From NCBI GenBank assembly GCA_009843635.1, contig VYDB01000078.1:63656-127655 (forward strand): 64,000 nt of DNA. Reading direction: 5' to 3'. This document shows positions 45,878-56,992 of the stretch, piece after piece. The position numbers and the translations under genes are program-made. Source of the stretch: Gammaproteobacteria bacterium. GTDB taxonomy: Bacteria; Pseudomonadota; Gammaproteobacteria; Pseudomonadales; Azotimanducaceae. The notes below the pieces were generated by a model. It searched no databases, was not told the DNA's origin, and saw nothing but the letters and a program-made list of their open reading frames with translations. Numbering within the stretch: position 1 is the stretch's first letter; each line of letters begins with the position of its first letter.

Positions 45878-48130
45878 CTAAAACGCGATGCGTACGCCTA
45901 GCGATGCGGTGCGGTCCTTGTTGGGCCGGGCACCGTAGGGTTGGCGGCCAACGATCTCCTGCTCGCGGGTCAGGTTCTCGACCCGGGCAAAGAGGTCGAG
46001 GCTGTCGGTTAGATGGTAGTTGCCCGCGAAGTCGATGGTCAGCGTGCTGCCAGTGCGCTCAAATGCGCCGCAAGCCGCCCTCGTGCAGACCCCTTCAATG
46101 TAGTTGGCGGACAGGAACAACGCCCAGCGGGTCTGCTGCAAGCCGAGGGTCAGGTTGAGTTGGTGGTCCGGGATGTAGGGTATGGGGTCGCCCTTGCGGA
46201 CGTCGCCGAAGAAGTCGGTGTCCGCAATGTCGGTATCGAACTCGCCGTTGATGTGGGTGTAGGCCAACTCCAACGGGAGGCTCACGGCAGCGTCCGGCAG
46301 CAGGTCCGCGGCTAAGCGCAACTCCAGGCCAATGACGGTTGCCGCATCGCCATTGAAGGCGTCGCCGATTTCGCAGTCTGCGCCCGAGGAGGCCGTGCAT
46401 TCGCCGAGCAGGTTGTCGTAGTCGCTGAGGAACCAAGTGGCTTCGGCGCTGAGCCGTTCGCCATTGAAGCGGGCGCCGGCCTCGTAGTTCAAGGCGGTTT
46501 CCTCGTCCACGCCAGGCGCGTTGGTGGGTGCCGTGAAGCCTTTGTGGACACCGCCGAACAGGGTCAGGCGGTCGGTGAGACTGTAGATGGCGCCAGCCCC
46601 CGGCAGCCAGACTCGAGTCTGGTTGCGACGGCTGCTGCGCAGGTTGTCGGCGGCCCGGGAGGCTGGGTTGGCGGTGCGTCCGGCCCGGGTCTCCCAGCGG
46701 GTGCGGCGCTGGTCGATGTCCTCGTAGCGCAGGCCTGGAGTGAAGGTCCAGCGGCCCCACTGGATTTCATCGACCAGATGCAGCGACAGGGCCTGCGCCT
46801 CCTGCAGGCGATTGCCGGCGTTGCCGAGCAGGCCCTGGTCGTCGAGGCGCAGGCGTCCGCCGCTTTGGTGGTAGGTGCTGTTGCGCTGCAGGCGGTCCTC
46901 CTCGTCCTCGTGGTAGCGGGCGCCGATGTTGATCCGGTGGCTGAGCGCGCCCGTGGCAGCGGTCCAAGAGAGGCTGCCCTGCACGCCGCGGGAGAAGTAG
47001 GTGCGCGCATTGGAGCGGATCTGGATGCTGCCCGGCGCCGTGTCGAGCGCGCCGTGCAATATCGCCTGCAATTGGCCGGGGCCCACGCCGCCAATGGGCT
47101 GGCCAAGATTGATGGCCTGCACCACGTTTGACCAACTGGTGCGGGAGAACGATTGGGCGTCGGCGCTGCCGTCGAAGTCGATGCCCTCGGTCTTGAACCA
47201 ATTTCGTTCGTGCTCGTTGTCGTAGTAGATCACGGACGCCGCGACCGAGTCGCTGGGCGTCCACTGGTAGCGGACGATCAGTTGCTCATGCTCCGTGGCG
47301 ATGTTGTCGAGGCTTGACAACCCATAGCGGCGGAAGGGGTCGCGGGCAAAGTCGGCGTCCGTGAGCCCGAGGTAGCTCTGCTCCGAATCCTGCTCGGCAA
47401 TCTGCATCTTCAGCGCCAAGGCGTGGTCGGAACCCTCCGGCGCGTAGCTCAGCTTGAGGGTGTAGTCCTCTAGGTCGAGGCCAGAGTCGCCGCCCCGGTC
47501 CACGCCTTGGAAACCATCCGAACGCCATTGGTGGGTTTCCACCAGAAAACCGAAACCGGCCGCATTGCGGGCGCCGTAGTGGCCGTGCAGGCGCCAAGTG
47601 GCGTCTTCGGCGCCTTCGAGCATGGCGTACCCGGCCGCCTCGTCCGGGATGGGGGTCGAGAGCATGTTCAGCGCACCGCCGATGGTGTAGGGGCCCTGGC
47701 TGATGGCGGCCGGCCCGGTGAGCACTTCGATGGCCGCCATGCGGCCCAAGGTGGGGAAATAGTATGCGCTCGGCGCGGAATAGGGCGCCGGCGCGATCAG
47801 CACGTTGTCTTCCAAGAGGGTTATGCGCCCGCTGCGCTCGGTGGCCACCCCGCGGATGCTGATGTTGGGCCGCAGCCCGTAACCGTCCTCCACCTGCACG
47901 GATACCCCCGGCACTTGGCGAATGACGCGCTGAATGTCGGCATGTCCGAGGCGCCGAAGCTCCTCGATGCCAATGTGATGGGCGCTGCCGGCGATGCGGT
48001 TGGCCTGCGCCCGCTCGCCAACGATCAACACCTCCTCGATGAAGGCTGGGTCATCCGCCTGCGTCGGCAGTGCCGCGCCAGCAAAAAGAAGCATGCCGGC
48101 CAACGCCGTGAAACCAGCCTTGCGAACCAT
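45878..48130 (-). CDS. TonB-dependent outer-membrane receptor (iron/siderophore type)
   Basis: 750 residues. The signal peptide ends ALPTQA, followed by a TonB-box-like segment (EEVLIVGE), the plug domain (VIRQVPGVSVQVEDGYGLRPNISIRG; LEDNVLIAPAPYSAPSAYYF) and a 22-strand barrel ending in ASLGVRIAF with a terminal Phe. It imports a ligand across the outer membrane with TonB energy. A Fur-box-like site 41 bases upstream points to iron control and a ferric siderophore or citrate ligand. No inner-membrane uptake genes are nearby. Confidence 0.93.
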   Translation of the reverse strand: MVRKAGFTALAGMLLFAGAALPTQADDPAFIEEVLIVGERAQANRIAGSAHHIGIEELRRLGHADIQRVIRQVPGVSVQVEDGYGLRPNISIRGVATERSGRITLLEDNVLIAPAPYSAPSAYYFPTLGRMAAIEVLTGPAAISQGPYTIGGALNMLSTPIPDEAAGYAMLEGAEDATWRLHGHYGARNAAGFGFLVETHQWRSDGFQGVDRGGDSGLDLEDYTLKLSYAPEGSDHALALKMQIAEQDSEQSYLGLTDADFARDPFRRYGLSSLDNIATEHEQLIVRYQWTPSDSVAASVIYYDNEHERNWFKTEGIDFDGSADAQSFSRTSWSNVVQAINLGQPIGGVGPGQLQAILHGALDTAPGSIQIRSNARTYFSRGVQGSLSWTAATGALSHRINIGARYHEDEEDRLQRNSTYHQSGGRLRLDDQGLLGNAGNRLQEAQALSLHLVDEIQWGRWTFTPGLRYEDIDQRRTRWETRAGRTANPASRAADNLRSSRRNQTRVWLPGAGAIYSLTDRLTLFGGVHKGFTAPTNAPGVDEETALNYEAGARFNGERLSAEATWFLSDYDNLLGECTASSGADCEIGDAFNGDAATVIGLELRLAADLLPDAAVSLPLELAYTHINGEFDTDIADTDFFGDVRKGDPIPYIPDHQLNLTLGLQQTRWALFLSANYIEGVCTRAACGAFERTGSTLTIDFAGNYHLTDSLDLFARVENLTREQEIVGRQPYGARPNKDRTASLGVRIAF

Positions 48131-48236: not shown

Positions 48237-48323
48237 TGGTGCCGAGGAGAGGACTTGAACCTCCACGGGGTTACCCCCACTAGCACCTGAAGCTAGCGTG
48301 TCTACCAATTTCACCACCTCGGC
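48237..48323 (-). tRNA. tRNA-Leu (anticodon CAG)
   Basis: 87 bases on the minus strand, including an encoded CCA (48237-48239). The acceptor stem is GCCGAGG/CCTCGGC, the D-arm reads TGAAATTGGTAGACAC as in bacterial tRNA-Leu, and the T-loop is GGTTCAAGTCC. The anticodon stem CTAGC/GCTAG encloses the loop TTCAGGT, anticodon CAG, which reads CUG. A long variable arm (GTGGGGGTAACCCCGT region) confirms a class II tRNA-Leu. Confidence 0.95.
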
Positions 48324-48471: not shown

Positions 48472-49311
48472 ATGCGATTGTGGGCGATTTCCGACCTCCA
48501 CCTTTCCCATCCGAGGAACCGGGAAGCCTTGGACGACCTCCCCGCCCACCCCAACGATTGGCTGATCCTGGCCGGCGACATCAGCGACGGCCCCAAGCGG
48601 CTCGAAGGCTGCTTCCGCCGCCTAGCCGGCAAATTCCGGCAGATCGTCTGGATACCGGGCAACCACGAGCTCTGGTCGCTGCCCCGAGACCCCGACGGGC
48701 TGCGCGGCGTCGCCCTCTACCAACGCCTCGTCGAAGTGGCGCGCGGGCACGGCGTGCTGACGCCGGAAGACCCTTATCCAATCGTGGAGCACCAAGCCGG
48801 CCCAGTGCTGATCGCACCCCTGTTCCTGCTTTACGACTACAGCTTCCGGCCCGACCAAGTGCCGTTCGATCAAGTCGTGCAATGGGCCACGGAGGCCAAT
48901 TCAGCCTCCGCCGATGAGTCGCTGCTGCACCCAGACCCCTTCGCCGACCGCCCGGCCTGGTGCGCCGCGCGCTGCCAAGAGACGGCGGCACGGCTCGCCG
49001 CTTATCCCGAGGATCTGCCCAAGGTGCTCATCAATCACTACCCGCTCGAGGAGCGGCTGGCGGTGCTGCCCCGAGTGCCGCGCTTCACGCCTTGGTGCGG
49101 CACCCGGCTGACGCACGGCTGGCACCGGCGCTTCAACGCCTGTGCCGTGGTTTACGGGCATCTGCACATCCGCGGCACCCGCTGGCTCGACGGCGTGCCC
49201 TTCCAGGAAGTGTCGCTCGGCTACCCTGACCAATGGAACCAGGGCCTCGGCATCGGCGCCTACCTGCGCGAAGTGACCGTCGCCGCGTCGCGATCCGCCC
49301 CTGTAATCTGA
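48472..49311 (+). CDS. PptH-like metallophosphoesterase (putative phosphopantetheine hydrolase)
   Basis: 279 residues from ATG 48472, directly before the first catalytic strand. All five metallophosphoesterase motifs are present: SDLHLSH, LAGDISD, PGNHELW, INHYP and YGHLHI. The protein resembles mycobacterial PptH (Rv2795c) in detail from memory: NDWLILAGDI, WIPGNHELWSLPRDP, PLFLLYDYSFRP and the EVSLGYP end. PptH removes 4'-phosphopantetheine from carrier proteins, opposing the transferase PptT, with which it is linked. Here a phosphopantetheinyl transferase lies 1.3 kb downstream, beyond the selenoprotein gene. The link to that function is inferred. Confidence 0.8.
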   Translation: MRLWAISDLHLSHPRNREALDDLPAHPNDWLILAGDISDGPKRLEGCFRRLAGKFRQIVWIPGNHELWSLPRDPDGLRGVALYQRLVEVARGHGVLTPEDPYPIVEHQAGPVLIAPLFLLYDYSFRPDQVPFDQVVQWATEANSASADESLLHPDPFADRPAWCAARCQETAARLAAYPEDLPKVLINHYPLEERLAVLPRVPRFTPWCGTRLTHGWHRRFNACAVVYGHLHIRGTRWLDGVPFQEVSLGYPDQWNQGLGIGAYLREVTVAASRSAPVI

Positions 49312-49452
49312 AAATCATTCGGCTAGGATAGCTGTTTAGTTTTCTTGATCGCGGGGCAAGGTTGTCACACGAATCAACTGCTGCGCCCGGCGACCACCCA
49401 CTCGTCAGCTTGAGGCGTCGCCTCGTTGGCATTCTGACCAAAGGAGCATGGC

Positions 49453-50595
49453 ATGGCTGAAACCATGATGGCGTATCCGGAACTGCGTCACCCATACGAA
49501 GTGACGCCGATTCATCCTCCGGGCAGCACCACGGTGCTGCACCAAGGACGGGCAGTCACCCTGGCTGAAACCGGCGATGGCGATGGCCTGCTCATCAGGC
49601 CGGAAGACCTGCCCCGGGTGAACGGTTTCGAGTTGAAGCCGGAAGGCGCCTGCCGTGAAGGCCTGTGCATACCGATGAACGATGACTTGCTGATCAGCAG
49701 GGACGACGGGCAGTGGTTTGACCTAGCCGCCTTCGCCGATCTGACTGGGCAGCCGTACGTGGCCGACCGGCCCGCTGGGGTGTGGAGCTTTGCCGAAGTC
49801 CCGGCGACGCGCGAGCCCATGATGGCCGATGCCATGGCGCCCGACTTCGCAGTGACGGATCGGCAGGGCAACCGTGTCGCAACGGCCGACCTCAAGGGAA
49901 AAAAGGCGCTGATCGTGACTTGGTCATCCTGGTGAGGCTGCCAGCTTGACGTGCCCGTGTGGCAGCGTGTTTACGAAGAGATCAACGATCCGGACTTCGT
50001 CCTCATTTGCGCCGCGCAAGATACCGGCGGCGAAGCGGTGGCCGGGCCGATTTTCGACGCGGCGAACCCCACCTATGTTCAGGTCGTGGACGAAGATCAC
50101 GTCATTAGCAGCGCGTTCAATTTCGTGAACGTGCCTTCCGCAGCCTGGATCGATGAGACCGGCAGGATCGTGCGCATTGATGAAGGCACCTACGCGGCAA
50201 TCCACGAGATCGGCGACGGTGAAGAGAAGTTCGTTTTCGGCAACGATGTTTACGCGCAGGCCGTGAAGGACTGGGTGGCAAATGGGGCGCGCAGCAGATT
50301 CGCCCAATCCACCGCCACGGTCTCGGGAAACATCCGCAAGCACAGCTTCGATCAACGCAAGGCCGATGCGGCATTTCGGCTGGCCAACCTGTTCCGGGCG
50401 CACGGCTGGCAAGCCAAGGCGGAGCAGTACTGGGAGATGGCCCGATCGCTGAATCCCGACAGCATCAACTTCATTCGGCAGAATCTCACGCTGACGGAAG
50501 AGGGTTCGGCCGGCGAGACCTTCCGCAAGGTGGTGATGGACTACGCCAACCAGGGCAAGGACTACTACCGGCCCCTGGACCTGGAAGAGGCCTGA
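49453..50595 (+). CDS. Redoxin-domain selenoprotein (in-frame UGA at the active site)
   Basis: Read through TGA 49933-49935 the gene is a single frame of 380 residues with Sec161. Before it the redoxin start is normal (MAPDFAVTDRQGN; KGKKALIVTWSSW); then U, GC and QLDVPVWQRVYEEIND continue the thioredoxin fold, followed by the typical AAWIDETGRIVRIDEG strand. The position of U is that of the first Cys of a CxxC active site (WC in ordinary thioredoxins), giving a UGC motif. The N-terminal 100 residues carry a Cys pair (ACREGLC); the C-terminus is helical and TPR-like (DAAFRLANLFRAHGWQAKAEQYWEMA). ATG 49453 has AAGGAG seven bases upstream. It probably acts as a thiol/selenol peroxidase or reductase. 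Confidence 0.85.
49933..49966 (+). promoter_or_regulatory. Bacterial SECIS-like element
   Basis: The UGA (49933-49935) is followed by a stem GCTGCCA (49937-49943) / TGGCAGC (49960-49966). An inner stem ACG/CGT (49949-49951/49956-49958) closes a TGCC loop (49952-49955) with G in second place. The UGA-to-apical-loop distance is 16 bases. These features fit the bacterial SECIS pattern bound by SelB. Confidence 0.75.
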
Positions 50596-50647
50596 GGGCA
50601 CGGTAATCAAGGATCAATGGTGGCGCCTGTGGCAGGAAACCGACGGC

Positions 50648-51316
50648 GTGACCATCCTGCACGTGGACCTGTCGCCACACGCCAACCGCGAGGCGCGCGC
50701 CTTCGCCCTGCTCGATGCCCAGGAGACCCGGCGGGCGCGGCGATTCGTGGTCGAGCCGCCCCGGCGCCGCTTCGTCCTATGCCGGGCAGCGCTGCGGGTC
50801 AACCTCTGCCAACGGCTCGACTGCCGCAACGAACGGCTTTCATTCAGCGCTCTCAAACACGGCAAGCCGGTCGCCGAAGTGAATGGCGAGCGCGTCTCCC
50901 TAGGCTTCAACCTCAGCCACAGCGGCGGGCACGGGCTAATCGCCATTGCGGCCCATGAGCAGCTCGGCATCGATGTCGAGGAACGCAAGCCCGGCCGCAA
51001 CTTCGAAGGCATTGGCAGACGCGTCTATGGCCCCGCCGAGCGCCGATTGCTGGCGCAGGCCGATGGGCAGCGCAAGGCGGCGTTCTTCTATCGGTTGTGG
51101 ACTTTGAAGGAAGCGCTGATCAAGGGCTTGGGCACCGGCTTCACGCTCAACCCAGCCACCTTCGAGGTGCCCGAGCCCATGCTGCGCGGCGAACGCTCAG
51201 GCCGGTTTCAATTCCCGCACCAGCCCGAGGACAACTGGCAACTGCTGGACCTAGGGGAACCCCGCTTCGCCGCCGCACTTGCCTACCGGCTGGACCGCCG
51301 AACGCCAAACGAGTAA
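50648..51316 (+). CDS. 4'-phosphopantetheinyl transferase (Sfp/Gsp superfamily)
   Basis: 222 residues from GTG 50648. The transferase signatures are present: LGFNLSHSGGHGLIAIAA, LGIDVEERK (metal Asp/Glu) and FFYRLWTLKEALIKGLGTGF. It moves 4'-phosphopantetheine from CoA to a Ser of carrier proteins (AcpP, PKS, NRPS). The open frame before GTG contains a WWRLWQ-like segment typical of Sfp N-termini, so a non-standard upstream start is possible. It lies 52 bases after the selenoprotein gene, in the same direction. Confidence 0.9.
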   Translation: MTILHVDLSPHANREARAFALLDAQETRRARRFVVEPPRRRFVLCRAALRVNLCQRLDCRNERLSFSALKHGKPVAEVNGERVSLGFNLSHSGGHGLIAIAAHEQLGIDVEERKPGRNFEGIGRRVYGPAERRLLAQADGQRKAAFFYRLWTLKEALIKGLGTGFTLNPATFEVPEPMLRGERSGRFQFPHQPEDNWQLLDLGEPRFAAALAYRLDRRTPNE

Positions 51317-51346: not shown

Positions 51347-52498
51347 GTGATCAGGCAGTATCTGGGCGCCCTGCTCGTTCTCGCTGTCGGCGTCGGCGTG
51401 GCCGCGTTGATCGTGGCCACCGGCCCAACGACCGTCAAGCAACCGAGCCGGCCAGACATTCCGGTCGTGCAGGCAACGCCCGTGCAGCCCCGGTGGGTGC
51501 AGATGACGGTTCGCGCGCACGGCGAAGTGATCCCCAAAACCGAAAGCAACTTGGTTGCGGAGGTGGCGGGGCGGGTCGTCAGCGTGGCGCCGGCGATGGT
51601 CTCCGGCGGCTTTTTTGCCAAGGACGACGTTCTGGTTGAAATCGAAAGCGTCGACTACCGGGTCGCTCTCGAACAAGCGCGGGCGCGCCTGGCATCGAGG
51701 CGCAGTGACCTCGATACCGCCGAAAAGGACTTCGACCGACTCGAGGAATTGGCCAAGACCCAATTCGTCAGCGAGTCGGCGCACGATGCTGCGTCCAATC
51801 AGCTTGCCGTGGCGAGCGCGGCATTGCGCTCGGCCCAGGCCAGCTTGGAGCGGGCCGAACGCGACCTGGCCCGCACTCAGATCACGGCGCCCTATGACGG
51901 CCGGGTGCGCACGGAACGGCTGGACGTGGGCCAATTCGTGAACCGTGGCGAAACAATCGCTGCCCTCTACTCCATCGACTACGCGGAAGTGCGGCTGCCG
52001 ATCCGCGATGTCGATCTTGCGTTCCTGCCGCTTTCCCTGGCGAACCGGCAAAACGATGAGCCGCCGCCCAAGGCAAGATTGCGCGCGGAGTTCGCCGGAG
52101 CGGAACACTTCTGGGTTGCCGACGTGGTGCGCACGGAAGGCGAACTGGATCCGCTTACCCGCATGGTCAACGTGGTTGCGCAGGTGCCGAAGCCCTACGA
52201 ACCCGCCGGCGCCTCGCCGCCCTTGACCGTCGGCCTGTTCGTTGAAGCGGAGATCTTTGGCAATTGGGTCGAGGATGTCTTCATCGTGCCGCGCACGGCG
52301 CTGCAGGAAGGCGGCAAGGTCTATGTCGTGGCGGATGACGGCCGCCTCTCGTTTCGCGACGTGGCGGTGTTGCGCAGGACCGGCGAGACCCTTTACCTGC
52401 AAGGCGAGTTGGAATCCAGCGAAGTGGTCTGCCTTTCGCCGCTCGCCAACGCGACCGAAGGGCAGCGCGTTCGCACCATCCTGGCCAGTGAGGCCTAG
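51347..52498 (+). CDS. RND efflux periplasmic adaptor (membrane-fusion protein) 1
   Basis: 383 residues. An N-terminal anchor helix (YLGALLVLAVGVGVAALIVA) is followed by the MFP layout: lipoyl halves (VAEVAGRVVSVAPAMVSGGF; ITAPYDGRVRTERLDVGQFV), an alpha-helical hairpin (ARASRRSDLDTAEKDFD region) and beta-barrel. GTG 51347 follows CGGAGAGG. It would link an RND pump to an outer-membrane channel. It is first of five genes: two adaptors and three permeases. Confidence 0.9.
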   Translation: MIRQYLGALLVLAVGVGVAALIVATGPTTVKQPSRPDIPVVQATPVQPRWVQMTVRAHGEVIPKTESNLVAEVAGRVVSVAPAMVSGGFFAKDDVLVEIESVDYRVALEQARARLASRRSDLDTAEKDFDRLEELAKTQFVSESAHDAASNQLAVASAALRSAQASLERAERDLARTQITAPYDGRVRTERLDVGQFVNRGETIAALYSIDYAEVRLPIRDVDLAFLPLSLANRQNDEPPPKARLRAEFAGAEHFWVADVVRTEGELDPLTRMVNVVAQVPKPYEPAGASPPLTVGLFVEAEIFGNWVEDVFIVPRTALQEGGKVYVVADDGRLSFRDVAVLRRTGETLYLQGELESSEVVCLSPLANATEGQRVRTILASEA

Positions 52499-52618
52499 CC
52501 GGATTTCTTGTTGCGCAAAAGTGCGCTAGCATTCCCGCATTGATGCAGCAACGATCGGTTCGGGCGAGTGGGGAGGCCCGCGCTTGGACCCTGGACGCGA
52601 CTGAGGGGGAGCTTGAAC

Positions 52619-53785
52619 ATGGCGGAGTCGGGTGACGACAATCAGGATTCCGGGCAGCAGCAGCGCTGGCGCGGCATTCTCCAACTGGCGATCATCGTTG
52701 CGGTGATCCTGGCGGCGATTTTCTTCGCCCGCGCACCTAGCCGTGAATTCCTCGAACTGGATCCCGAACTGGCCGAGGTCCGCGTCACCCCCACCGCCGC
52801 GGTAATCGAGCCGACAGCGACCCCCGCATCCCACAAGGTGGTGTTGACCGGCACGGTGACGACCTTGGGCAATGTGTCAGTCCGGTCCGAGACTTCAGGG
52901 CAAGTGGTGTGGGTGTCCGAGAACTTCCGCAGCGGCGCCGAGTTCAAGGCTGACGAAACTTTGGCGCGGGTCGATGCGCGGGACATGGAGCTGATGCTCG
53001 CAAACGCCAAGCTCGGGCTGGTTGCCGCCCAGGAAAACCTCAAGCAGAGGCGCGACGAGGCAGCGCGAGCGCCGCAATTCCTGCAGCGGTTCCCCGGCGG
53101 GCATTTGAACCCGTGGCTCGCCACCGAAGGGACCATCGAAGAAGCCGAGGCACTGGTCGAAATCGCCCGCAACAACGTCAAGCTCGCCGAAATCGAACTG
53201 GACGAAACGAGGATCCGGATGCCGTTCGACGGCTATGTGCGAAAGACGGTGCTGTCCCGAGGGCAGGTGGTCGAACGGCTGGTCTCCGATCTCGGGACTG
53301 TCTATGCGAAGCATCAATTGCGGGTGCGCGCCCGCATTTCGGCATTCGACCTGAATTCCCTGCAGCCGGTCATCGGCCGCAAGGCCGTCGTGGTCGCCAA
53401 CGGCCAGGCCATTGACACGGTGGTCGAGCGCGTCTCGAAGGAAGTCGATATCGAGACGCGATTGGCCAGCCTGTACCTCGAGGTGCTCGACCAAGAGAAC
53501 GCGGCCATGCTGCCGCCTCCCGGCACCTTTGCGGACGTGACCGTGCAAGGGCCGATGCAGGACGACGTGTTCGTGCTGCCCGAATCGGCGTTGCAGATCA
53601 GCGGCAGCGTCTGGCTGGTCGATGACGGCCAGCTCACCGCGTACACCCCCGCTTCGGTGGGGTACAGCGACGGCGGTTGGCTGGTCCGTGCGTTCGATAC
53701 CCGTGATGGCATCGTGGTGGGCCGCGTACCGGGAGCGCGCGAAGGCCTCGGCGTGAACGCCGTGCCCGCCGGAGCGGCGCAGTAG
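52619..53785 (+). CDS. RND efflux periplasmic adaptor 2
   Basis: 388 residues from ATG 52619, behind GAGGGGGAG. One N-terminal membrane helix (GILQLAIIVAVILAAIFFA) leads to a HlyD-like adaptor: VRSETSGQVVWVSENFRSGAEF, a helical hairpin (AQENLKQRRDEAARAPQF) and RIRMPFDGYVRKTVLSRGQVVE. It is quite different from adaptor 1, so the two may pair with different permeases or form a mixed ring. RND permease 1 starts 43 bases downstream. Confidence 0.9.
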   Translation: MAESGDDNQDSGQQQRWRGILQLAIIVAVILAAIFFARAPSREFLELDPELAEVRVTPTAAVIEPTATPASHKVVLTGTVTTLGNVSVRSETSGQVVWVSENFRSGAEFKADETLARVDARDMELMLANAKLGLVAAQENLKQRRDEAARAPQFLQRFPGGHLNPWLATEGTIEEAEALVEIARNNVKLAEIELDETRIRMPFDGYVRKTVLSRGQVVERLVSDLGTVYAKHQLRVRARISAFDLNSLQPVIGRKAVVVANGQAIDTVVERVSKEVDIETRLASLYLEVLDQENAAMLPPPGTFADVTVQGPMQDDVFVLPESALQISGSVWLVDDGQLTAYTPASVGYSDGGWLVRAFDTRDGIVVGRVPGAREGLGVNAVPAGAAQ

Positions 53786-53827
53786 GTACCCTGGCAACCA
53801 CTGTAACGCGCAGGCAGGGAGTCCGCC

Positions 53828-56800
53828 ATGGCTGAATCCGCAAGCATCGGTGATCCGGACGCCGGCGCGCGCGTGGGCGTCATCGCCTACTTCGCCCGCA
53901 ATCCCGTCGCCGCCAACGTACTCCTGTTCCTGCTCTTCGTTGGCGGGCTGATCGCCTCCGACCTGATCACCCTCGAGACATTCCCCGAATACGACCCCCG
54001 CGTCATCCGCGTCGAAGTGCCCTATCCGGCCGCAACCCCGGCGGAGGTCGAGGAAGACATCGTCAAGCGCATCGAGGAAAGCCTGGTGGGCACCATTGGC
54101 ATCGCCCGCACCATCTCCAGCTCCCGCGAGGAACGGGCCGTCGTCGATGTGGAGATGGAACCCTTCGCTGACGACATCGACACCCTCAATTTCGTGCGCA
54201 CGGCCATCGAGCGCATCGAGGACTTCCCGCCGCTCAACGCCGATGAGCCGGAAGTGACCAAGGTCGAGGTCAGCCGCAAGGTGCTGACGATCGCCTTGAG
54301 CTCCGGGGCGCTCGACCCCTTCGAGTTGCGTCACGCCGCGGAGTCGCTGCGGGACCGGCTGCTGCTGCTGCCCAGCATATCGATCATCGATCTGTTCGGG
54401 ACGAAGGACCAGGAGATTCAAGTCGAGCTCAGCGAAGAGACCCTACGCCAGTACGGCATCACCCTGGACCACGTGGTGAGCGCCATCCGGCGGACGTCGG
54501 TGAACGTCACCGGCGGCGAACTGCGCACCGGGTCAGGGGACATCATCATGAGCACCCTGGCCAAGCGCGATTACGCCGACCAATTCGACGACGTGGTGGT
54601 CCTTGCCCGGCCGGACGGTTCGCTGGTGCGCCTCGGCGACATCGCGGAACTGCGCGACAGCCTGCTCGAACACGACGCCGTAGCCACCGTCAACGGCGTC
54701 CCCACCATATTTCTCCAAGTCAAGGTCTCCGCCGACACCTCCCCCCAGGAAGCAAGCGCCCAGGTGCGCGACTACCTAGACGGCTTCGAGGCACCCGCAA
54801 CCGTCGGGGTGGCCATCTGGGAAGATGAGACTTGGGCGGTCGAGGACCGCATGTACTTGATCATCAAGAACGGGATCTTCGGCCTGATCCTGGTGTTCGC
54901 CACCCTCATGCTCCTGTTCGACCTGCGCGTAGCGACTTGGGTGGCGCTCGGCGTTCCCGTGGTGTTCGTGGCCTCGCTGATCGTCTTTCCTTTCTTTGGC
55001 CTCACCCTGAACGTCATGACGCTGTTCGCGTTCTTCATACTGATCGGCATCGTCGTGGACGACTCGATCGTGGTGGGCGAGAACATCGCGATGCGCTTGG
55101 ATCGAGGTGAAACCGGCGCCGAGGCCGCCATCGCCGGCACCCGGGAAGTCATTGCTCCCATTGCGGTCGGCGCCTTCACCACCATGGCGGCATTCGCGGC
55201 GCTGCTGCCGCTCGACGGGCTGATCGGCCAGATGTTTGCCGTGATCCCGATCGTGGTGGTGGTCGTGCTGCTGTTGTCCCTGTTCAAGGCGGCCTTCATT
55301 CTGCCTGGCCATCTCGCAAAACCTGGGCGCTGGAGCGCCTGGCCCCTGTCCGCAGCGCAGGAACGGTGTCACGCCGTCGCCCAGGCCATGATCGAGACCA
55401 GGATCGTTCCCCTGATCTCCTGGTCGGTGCGGCGCTTGCAATGGCCGCCGGTCATCGTCGCCGGCAGCGTTCTCGTTACCGCCTGCCTGCTGGTGTTCGG
55501 GGGCGTTCATTTCGACCCGAGCTTAAGGGTGGTGGACGAGAAAAACGTGCAGGTTGACCTAGTGCTGCCCCAGGACGCACGGCCCGAGGACCTGCAAGCC
55601 GTCACGGACCATGCGGTCGCGGCGGCGCAACGGGTGGACGCTGAGCTTGGCGGGCGGGTGATCGACGCGGTCGCGGTGGCCATCGGCCACCACTTCCCCG
55701 TGGAATCCTATCGCGGCGCGGATGCGCGTCAGTACCGCAGCAATCTGGCCTCCGTGCAACTGCGGCTCAATCCGCCCGAGGTGCGCGGCGTTACCATCGA
55801 AGAACTGCAGCACCGCTGGCGCCAGCGCCTGGCCCGCATGCCTGGCGTCGAGTCGGTGAGCTTCCCCACCCGGCAGACGCAGACATCGAATAGCCTGTCG
55901 TACGCATTGATGCATCCGGATCCACAGGTGCTTGCCGATGCCACCGAGGAGTTGCACGCGGCGCTCGCCCGCTTGGACGGCGTCAGCCAAGTCAACGACT
56001 CGATCGAGCAAGGCAAGCGCCGCTTCGATGTACGCCTCAACGCCGCCGGCGATACAGCCGGCCTGACCGCGGCATCGGTTGCCACCCAGTTGCGCAACAG
56101 CTTCTACGGCGCCGAGGCCCAGCGCATCCAGCGGGGCCGGGAAGAGGTTCTGGTGATGGTGAGGTACCCCCAGGATCGGCGCTCCAGCTACGCGGAGTTG
56201 CTCAACGAGCGCATCAACCTGCCGGCCAGCCGGGAGCAGGTTCCGTTGTACACGGTGGCCGAGATCACGGAAACCCGCAGCATCGCCAACCGGCTGCGCA
56301 TAGACGGGCGCAGCGCCGCGGTGGTTAGTGCCGACTACGATGCCGCGCGCTTGCTCTCCGGCGACTTGGCCGACGTGGTTGAGGAGCGGATTCTTCCAGA
56401 CCTCCAGAGCCGCTATCCGGAGATCCGAATTCGCAAGCACGGGGCAAACCGGGACATGGAACGCCTTACCGGCATCCTGACGCTTTCGGTGCCGATCGCA
56501 CTCTTGGTCATATATTGCCTGATCGCCTCCTTCCTGCGCAGTTTCGTGCAGCCGTTGCTGGCCCTAGCGGGCATTCCCATGGCATTCGTGGGCGCGGTGG
56601 CGGGGCACTTGGCGCTGGGTTACGAGTTCAGCATCACATCGATATTCGGCCTGCTCGCGGTTTCCGGCGTGGTCGTCAACGACACGATTCTACTGATGTA
56701 TCGCTACAACCACATGGTCCGAGAATCCGGCATGCCTGAGATTGCGGCAATTTCCGCGGCCACCCGGCAGCGTGCCCGGGCGATCCTGCTCACCAGCGTG

Positions 56801-56992
56801 ACCACCCTGCTCGGCCTGCTGCCGATTCTGTTCAGCGGCGACGAGGCCATTCGGTTCCTGATTCCGCTCGTGGTGAGCATCGCCTTCGGCTTGGTGTTCG
56901 CCGGCATCGGCCTGGTGTTCTTCCTGCCATCGGTCATCATGACGGTGGAACTGGCGAAAGGGCGGCTTGGCCGACGGCGGCTGGTGGGCTGA
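53828..56992 (+). CDS. RND efflux permease 1 (HAE-1/AcrB family)
   Basis: 1054 residues, full length with 12 membrane helices and two periplasmic porter domains. ATG 53828 has AGGGAG upstream. The TM4 proton-relay pair is in GIVVDDSIVVGEN (Asp411-Asp412). Typical elements include PAATPAEVEEDIVKRIEESL and the end GLVFAGIGLVFFLPSVI. It exports drugs, metabolites or lipids by proton exchange. Its stop is 35 bases before permease 2. Confidence 0.93.
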   Translation: MAESASIGDPDAGARVGVIAYFARNPVAANVLLFLLFVGGLIASDLITLETFPEYDPRVIRVEVPYPAATPAEVEEDIVKRIEESLVGTIGIARTISSSREERAVVDVEMEPFADDIDTLNFVRTAIERIEDFPPLNADEPEVTKVEVSRKVLTIALSSGALDPFELRHAAESLRDRLLLLPSISIIDLFGTKDQEIQVELSEETLRQYGITLDHVVSAIRRTSVNVTGGELRTGSGDIIMSTLAKRDYADQFDDVVVLARPDGSLVRLGDIAELRDSLLEHDAVATVNGVPTIFLQVKVSADTSPQEASAQVRDYLDGFEAPATVGVAIWEDETWAVEDRMYLIIKNGIFGLILVFATLMLLFDLRVATWVALGVPVVFVASLIVFPFFGLTLNVMTLFAFFILIGIVVDDSIVVGENIAMRLDRGETGAEAAIAGTREVIAPIAVGAFTTMAAFAALLPLDGLIGQMFAVIPIVVVVVLLLSLFKAAFILPGHLAKPGRWSAWPLSAAQERCHAVAQAMIETRIVPLISWSVRRLQWPPVIVAGSVLVTACLLVFGGVHFDPSLRVVDEKNVQVDLVLPQDARPEDLQAVTDHAVAAAQRVDAELGGRVIDAVAVAIGHHFPVESYRGADARQYRSNLASVQLRLNPPEVRGVTIEELQHRWRQRLARMPGVESVSFPTRQTQTSNSLSYALMHPDPQVLADATEELHAALARLDGVSQVNDSIEQGKRRFDVRLNAAGDTAGLTAASVATQLRNSFYGAEAQRIQRGREEVLVMVRYPQDRRSSYAELLNERINLPASREQVPLYTVAEITETRSIANRLRIDGRSAAVVSADYDAARLLSGDLADVVEERILPDLQSRYPEIRIRKHGANRDMERLTGILTLSVPIALLVIYCLIASFLRSFVQPLLALAGIPMAFVGAVAGHLALGYEFSITSIFGLLAVSGVVVNDTILLMYRYNHMVRESGMPEIAAISAATRQRARAILLTSVTTLLGLLPILFSGDEAIRFLIPLVVSIAFGLVFAGIGLVFFLPSVIMTVELAKGRLGRRRLVG

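What the first reader, a model, noticed from the sequence alone, without database searches (positions are those of the whole stretch)
48472..51316. PptH-like hydrolase and phosphopantetheinyl transferase in one cluster
The phosphoesterase shares with mycobacterial PptH its length, all five metal motifs and family phrases such as NHELW, LLYDYSF and SLGYP. In Mycobacterium this enzyme is encoded beside PptT and opposes it. Here the pair brackets a selenoprotein redoxin in the same direction. A phosphopantetheine cycle in a Gram-negative, with a redox partner, would be new to me.
Basis: partly seen in the sequence, partly recalled or inferred. Interest (0 to 1): 0.7.

Follow-up and report, generated by a model that had tools for sequence, protein, structure and literature searches.

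The report
Phosphopantetheine hydrolase-transferase gene pair beyond mycobacteria
A probably sponge-associated gammaproteobacterium carries the enzyme that strips the phosphopantetheine arm off acyl carrier proteins, reported only from mycobacteria, beside its apparently only enzyme for putting that arm on; the same two-gene pairing recurs in several bacterial phyla, which suggests that the 'on' and 'off' enzymes work as one unit.

Summary
Window 48472-49311 encodes a PptH orthologue: M. tuberculosis PptH (6UNC) is its only strong PDB sequence match (E 1e-70) and best fold match (Z 27.6, next 16.6), and the functionally tested residues H246 and C225 are conserved (H230, C209). Window 50648-51316 encodes an Sfp/HetI-type phosphopantetheinyl transferase (PPTase), the only PPTase found in this 96% complete genome, which has no AcpH and only two carrier proteins. 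A 2021 paper calls PptH unique to mycobacteria; here full-length homologues appear in Pseudomonadota, Gemmatimonadota, Acidobacteriota, Chloroflexota and several actinomycetes. In 33 of 50 loci a PPTase gene is adjacent, in three arrangements and from two PPTase subfamilies, often with a 4-base stop/start overlap. Hydrolase and transferase distances correlate (r 0.95-0.97), so the pair appears to have moved between phyla as a unit. The selenoprotein between them is a recent insertion, absent from the sister species. Best reading: an apo/holo carrier-protein cycle acting here mainly on AcpP of fatty acid synthesis. Activity and purpose are inferred, not tested.

The parts
48472..49311 (+). pptH: PptH-type metallophosphodiesterase (phosphopantetheinyl hydrolase), 279 aa, ATG start
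   Evidence: phmmer to 6UNC E 1.2e-70; predicted fold Z 27.6 to 6UNC; Mtb H246 and C225 conserved as H230 and C209; single copy in the genome
50648..51316 (+). Sfp/HetI-type 4'-phosphopantetheinyl transferase, probable GTG start at 50648; homology to relatives extends in frame to about 50615 but no standard start codon lies there
   Evidence: Pfam ACPS 62 bits and AASDHPPT_N; best PDB relatives Sfp 1qr0/4mrt; only PF01648 match in the genome; start-codon comparison
49312..50611 (.). lineage-specific insertion that separates the pair (approximate ends)
   Evidence: blastn of sister-species locus L003: window 49284 and 50612 are 44 bp apart there
49453..50595 (+). selenoprotein of redoxin fold, UGA codon at 49933-49935 (motif WSSWUGC), 380 aa; passenger within the insertion, not part of the conserved pair
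   Evidence: NF041054 227 bits, below its cut-off of 300; Redoxin Pfam; tRNA-Sec in the genome, 75 bits; absent from L003-L013 loci

Best explanation
The two genes encode opposing enzymes of a carrier-protein cycle. The PPTase moves 4'-phosphopantetheine (Ppt) from CoA onto the serine of carrier proteins (apo to holo). The PptH-type enzyme, with its two-metal centre, hydrolyses the same phosphodiester and releases Ppt (holo to apo). In this genome the transferase appears to be the only PPTase and no other known Ppt hydrolase was found; the only carrier proteins found are AcpP of fatty acid synthesis and one small ACP beside an aminotransferase-fold enzyme. The likely main substrate is therefore AcpP, not a polyketide or peptide synthase. 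The most likely use is resetting carriers: stripping blocked or mis-loaded arms left by a promiscuous Sfp/PptT-type PPTase, or lowering the holo-ACP pool. Shown by sequence: orthology, intact catalytic residues, recurrent adjacency, stop/start overlap in relatives, co-inheritance. Inferred: activity, substrate and purpose.
For: Identity: 6UNC is the only strong PDB sequence match and the top fold match, Z 27.6 versus 16.6 for the next entry. Of 66 columns at least 96% constant in 53 PptH-type sequences, Mtb PptH agrees in all but one, and many (W60, P98-E99, W208-C209, E246-V247-S248) are missing from more distant metallophosphoesterases. Function of the reference: Mtb PptH removes Ppt from carrier proteins, including E. 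coli, Klebsiella and Pseudomonas ACPs, and also removes S-modified (biotin-linked) Ppt; H246N is inactive (PMC8557913). Coupling: a PPTase gene beside PptH in 33 of 50 loci with adequate flanks, of Sfp/HetI or PptT/Npt type, in three arrangements; ATGA stop/start overlap in L003, L004, L005, L008, L009 and L013 and 1-4 base overlaps in Streptomyces and Tsukamurella. Mirror-tree r 0.97 (n 30), and 0.95 within the window's clade (n 18) with 0 of 5000 shuffles as high. No other neighbour family is shared across phyla to a like extent. Genome: one PPTase, no AcpH, two carrier proteins.
Against: No activity has been measured outside M. tuberculosis, and the physiological role of PptH is unknown even there (no role found in CoA salvage or mouse infection, PMC8557913). 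In 17 of 50 loci, including an 8-row Gemmatimonadota subclade, no PPTase is adjacent. In the window the insertion separates the two genes, so co-transcription here is uncertain. The genome is 96.5% complete: an AcpS or further carrier protein could be missing.
Confidence: 0.77

Rival explanations
1. The hydrolase is a PptH homologue that has shifted substrate: it cleaves another pantetheine diester or nucleotide such as CoA, dephospho-CoA or acyl-CoA, and the neighbouring PPTase reflects shared CoA metabolism.
For: Calcineurin-like phosphoesterases are versatile; the next folds are nucleotide, glycerol and sphingomyelin-type diesterases. In Mtb, CoA was tested only as a modulator, and the authors did not rule out that small molecules are substrates.
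Against: Active-site and family-specific residues match Mtb PptH; the recurrent partner is a PPTase, and other copies lie beside carrier-protein genes (NRPS).
Confidence: 0.12
2. The pair is a selfish or addiction-like module: PptH is harmful when the transferase falls short, so the linked PPTase protects the cell, and linkage reflects joint transfer rather than a metabolic role.
For: Pair distances correlate strongly across phyla; 7 of 10 paired MAGs have no other PPTase; in Mtb, PptH makes partial PptT inhibition lethal (PMC8557913).
Against: PptH is kept without an adjacent PPTase in 17 of 50 loci and as a chromosomal gene through mycobacteria; the PPTase is a housekeeping enzyme; nothing was found in phages.
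Confidence: 0.1
3. The three genes form one redox-linked unit in which the selenoprotein acts on the thiol of the Ppt arm.
For: Same strand and order in the window and in L002.
Against: Absent in the sister species and in all other loci examined around the pair; it breaks the stop/start overlap; profile kinship to a separate selenoprotein family.
Confidence: 0.03

Closest known systems
PptH/PptT of Mycobacterium tuberculosis (Rv2795c/Rv2794c)
   Same: Orthologous hydrolase (42-45% identity, same fold, same catalytic residues), encoded beside a PPTase
   Different: Gram-negative host; PPTase of the Sfp/HetI type instead of PptT; apparently the only PPTase in the genome (M. tuberculosis also has AcpS); no large synthases with carrier domains found, so AcpP is the likely substrate; protein shorter; pair split here by an insertion
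AcpH (ACP phosphodiesterase, PF04336) of E. coli and Pseudomonas
   Same: Same proposed reaction: removal of Ppt from holo-ACP
   Different: Unrelated HD-family fold; not encoded beside a PPTase as far as tested here; absent from this genome
Sfp / HetI / PcpS-type PPTases
   Same: Same superfamily and motifs; a single broad PPTase serving the cell is known for Pseudomonas PcpS (own knowledge)
   Different: Here linked to a dedicated Ppt hydrolase gene

Membership tests
PptH-type phosphopantetheinyl hydrolase (PTPH) | Full-length sequence homology to Mtb PptH, above all other metallophosphoesterases of solved structure | tested here: met
   E 1.2e-70 over residues 3-267; no other meaningful PDB sequence match
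PptH-type phosphopantetheinyl hydrolase (PTPH) | Metallophosphoesterase fold closest to 6UNC | tested here: met
   Foldseek E 8e-26; Z 27.6, rmsd 3.0 over 253 residues, next entry Z 16.6
PptH-type phosphopantetheinyl hydrolase (PTPH) | Metal-centre residues, and residues whose mutation inactivates Mtb PptH (H246, C225) | tested here: met
   H230 and C209 aligned; D8, H10, D36, N64, H65, H189, H230, H232 conserved in 96% or more (N188, not part of this claim, less so)
PptH-type phosphopantetheinyl hydrolase (PTPH) | Removes Ppt from holo-carrier proteins | not testable with these tools
   Needs an assay
AcpH (PF04336) | ACP_PD domain | tested here: not met
   P0001 matches only metallophosphoesterase models; no PF04336 match in the host genome
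Sfp-type PPTase (PF01648 with N-terminal AASDHPPT_N-like half) | Two-domain PPTase with the GIDVE and WTLKEALIK-type motifs | tested here: met
   Pfam matches; motifs in the translation; Sfp best in PDB
PptT/Npt PPTase | PptT/Npt-type sequence | tested here: not met
   No PptT/Npt model match for P0003 at E up to 1, whereas the Streptomyces partner scores 232-238 bits
WAxxUGC selenoprotein (NF041054) | Score above the model's curated cut-off of 300 bits | tested here: not met
   227 bits over residues 48-249: a relative, not a certified member

The most novel reading that the evidence does not exclude
PptH plus a promiscuous PPTase forms a horizontally mobile carrier-protein reset module spread over many phyla. 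Where it arrives it can replace AcpS as the only PPTase, so that the cell then depends on the transferase keeping ahead of the hydrolase; its main job is to erase blocked or mis-acylated phosphopantetheine arms.
Probability: 0.25. Interest if true: 0.8.

Novelty: new variant of a known kind. Interest (0 to 1): 0.62.

Why it matters
PptH is described as restricted to mycobacteria and its physiological role is an open question (PMC8557913). Finding the hydrolase-transferase pair in several phyla, with different PPTase subfamilies and gene orders, shows that the linkage is general and was probably formed or kept repeatedly, which argues for a common purpose that is not specific to mycobacteria. 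Genomes with one PPTase, one hydrolase and two carrier proteins reduce the question to a minimal system, and cultured carriers (Streptomyces, Niveispirillum) allow direct tests.

Tried and rejected
SECIS: the hairpin after the UGA folds no better than shuffles (z 0.59), so Sec decoding rests on in-frame homology, the family profile and tRNA-Sec. Phages: no PptH match; viral contigs gave only weak, generic metallophosphoesterase matches. Weak matches in the host's order (1e-21 to 1e-23) are a separate, distant subfamily, not PptH. A third conserved neighbour was sought and not found across phyla. Promoter and terminator scan: no promoter on the + strand, terminators not above chance. The PptH structure paper is not held; no paper found in the library reports PptH outside mycobacteria, but subscription papers are not covered. 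TAL-effector and APE1 matches are low-score noise. A misreading considered: that the PPTase is broken, because no standard start codon remains at the ancestral position; rejected because GTG 50648 keeps the whole Sfp-homologous part.

Full report
Observation. The window holds, on the + strand, a 279-aa metallophosphoesterase (48472-49311), a 380-aa UGA-containing redoxin (49453-50595) and an Sfp-type PPTase (50648-51316).

Identity of the hydrolase. phmmer against all PDB sequences gives one strong match, 6UNC, PptH of M. tuberculosis, E 1.2e-70 over residues 3-267. The AlphaFold2 model (mean pLDDT 80) finds the same entry first, Z 27.6 at rmsd 3.0 over 253 residues; the next entry has Z 16.6. 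The alignment places H246 (the N mutant is inactive) at H230 and C225 (the R mutant is a loss-of-function resistance mutant) at C209; the numbering assumes a chain offset of 3, which both residues fit. Among 53 PptH-type sequences 66 columns are at least 96% constant; Mtb PptH agrees in all but one, and many of them are absent from the more distant metallophosphoesterases. This is family membership, not superfamily resemblance.

Distribution. Pandey et al. 2021 state that PptH appears limited to mycobacteria and AcpH to Gram-negatives (PMC8557913). One scan of species genomes gave 12 relatives at 50-99% identity in MAGs labelled Gamma- and Alphaproteobacteria, Bryobacterales, Gemmatimonadetes and Anaerolineae. 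Sampled surveys at E 1e-40 found it in 5 of 398 Pseudomonadota, 15 of 249 genomes of the Gemmatimonadetes MAG's phylum, 14 of 247 of the Bryobacterales MAG's phylum and 3 of 251 of the Anaerolineae MAG's phylum, query genomes included. Among 194 sampled genomes of its order only the window's own had it, but the same-genus genome of L003 has it too. Plasmid records add Streptomyces, Tsukamurella, Nocardia, Nonomuraea and Niveispirillum. Several of the closest MAG names (RHO, CAR, COS) fit sponge surveys such as PMC8163846; the sponge link is inferred from names only.

Pairing. A PPTase gene lies beside PptH in 33 of 50 strong loci with adequate flanks. With one to three PPTases among several thousand genes, chance adjacency would be of the order of 0.1% per genome (own estimate). 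Eighteen have PptH then an Sfp/HetI-type PPTase, nine the reverse order, two are convergent, and four have PptH then a PptT/Npt-type PPTase. In L003, L004, L005, L008, L009 and L013 the PptH stop overlaps the PPTase start as ATGA; in L006 and L007 the overlap is longer. Streptomyces and Tsukamurella records show overlaps of 1-4 bases. No AcpS-type partner was seen. In one Streptomyces plasmid PptH overlaps an NRPS gene instead, and a distant relative in Agrobacterium vitis sits between a PPTase and fabD.

Co-inheritance. The window's PptH lies in a fully supported clade of 27 rows that mixes Gamma- and Alphaproteobacteria, Gemmatimonadota and Acidobacteriota, at about 65-75% identity across phyla. 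Distances of PptH and its PPTase partner correlate at 0.97 over 30 pairs and at 0.95 within this clade, above all shuffles. Transfer of the pair as a unit between phyla is the simplest reading; the direction is not resolved. Mis-binned contigs could explain single MAGs but not the pattern.

Genome context. In the host genome (96.5% complete) the paired PPTase is the only PF01648 match, as in 7 of the 10 paired MAGs; the other three have a further PPTase. AcpH is absent here and in 25 of 26 PptH genomes examined. Only two carrier proteins were found: AcpP upstream of fabF, and a small ACP beside an aminotransferase-fold enzyme, an epimerase and the C-terminal part of an AMP-binding enzyme. So the cycle, if active, probably works on the fatty-acid carrier.

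The selenoprotein. Where the window has about 1.3 kb between matched ends, L003 has 44 bp, so the selenoprotein gene came in between pptH and the PPTase in the lineage of the window and L002, unless L003 lost it; the adjacency in all deeper relatives favours insertion. It removed the overlap and, in the window, the original start codon of the PPTase; L002 has a GTG there. The window gene probably starts at GTG 50648, which is where Sfp itself begins by homology (own knowledge). tRNA-Sec is present. The gene is a passenger, not a conserved third component.

Mechanism. By homology the hydrolase uses a two-metal (Mn/Fe-type) centre to cleave the Ppt-serine phosphodiester. Mtb PptH acts on many carriers and also removes an S-blocked arm. 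Sfp-type PPTases accept many acyl- and modified CoAs (established knowledge), and all partners seen here are of the Sfp/HetI or PptT type, so removal of wrongly loaded arms is an attractive purpose; control of the holo-ACP pool is the main alternative. Neither has been tested.

Limits. No activity data; mostly MAG-based genomes; surveys sampled only part of each phylum; unpaired copies exist; the literature library lacks subscription papers, so a report of PptH outside mycobacteria could have been missed.

Noticed in passing
L096:296-2584 (G000:C109): The second carrier protein of the host genome lies beside an alpha-oxoamine-synthase-like aminotransferase-fold enzyme, an NAD-dependent epimerase and an AMP-binding C-terminal piece; it resembles a bacterial sphingolipid-type cluster.
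   Followed up: partly
L108:2977-3828 (Streptomyces sp. NBC_01243 plasmid): A PptH gene overlaps the end of an NRPS gene inside a biosynthetic cluster, a second kind of carrier-protein linkage.
   Followed up: no
L093:3198-6000 and L016:946-2571: A more distant metallophosphoesterase subfamily (TIGR03729-like, lacking PptH-specific residues) is also adjacent to PptT/EntD-type PPTases, in Agrobacterium vitis followed by fabD.
   Followed up: partly
L053-L056, L060-L062, L066: A Gemmatimonadota subclade keeps PptH but has no PPTase within 1.5 kb (L066 is cut off downstream), apparently a single loss of linkage.
   Followed up: partly
L047:1092-2105 (G076, same family as the host): A PPTase of the same clade as the paired ones, in a genome without a PptH match: possible loss of the hydrolase.
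   Followed up: no
window 51347-56992: HlyD-type and RND efflux genes lie directly downstream on the same strand; HlyD-like genes also occur near the pair in L003 and L008.
   Followed up: partly
window 48237-48323: tRNA-Leu (CAG) on the - strand just upstream of pptH, next to a TonB-dependent receptor-like gene (45878-48130, - strand).
   Followed up: no
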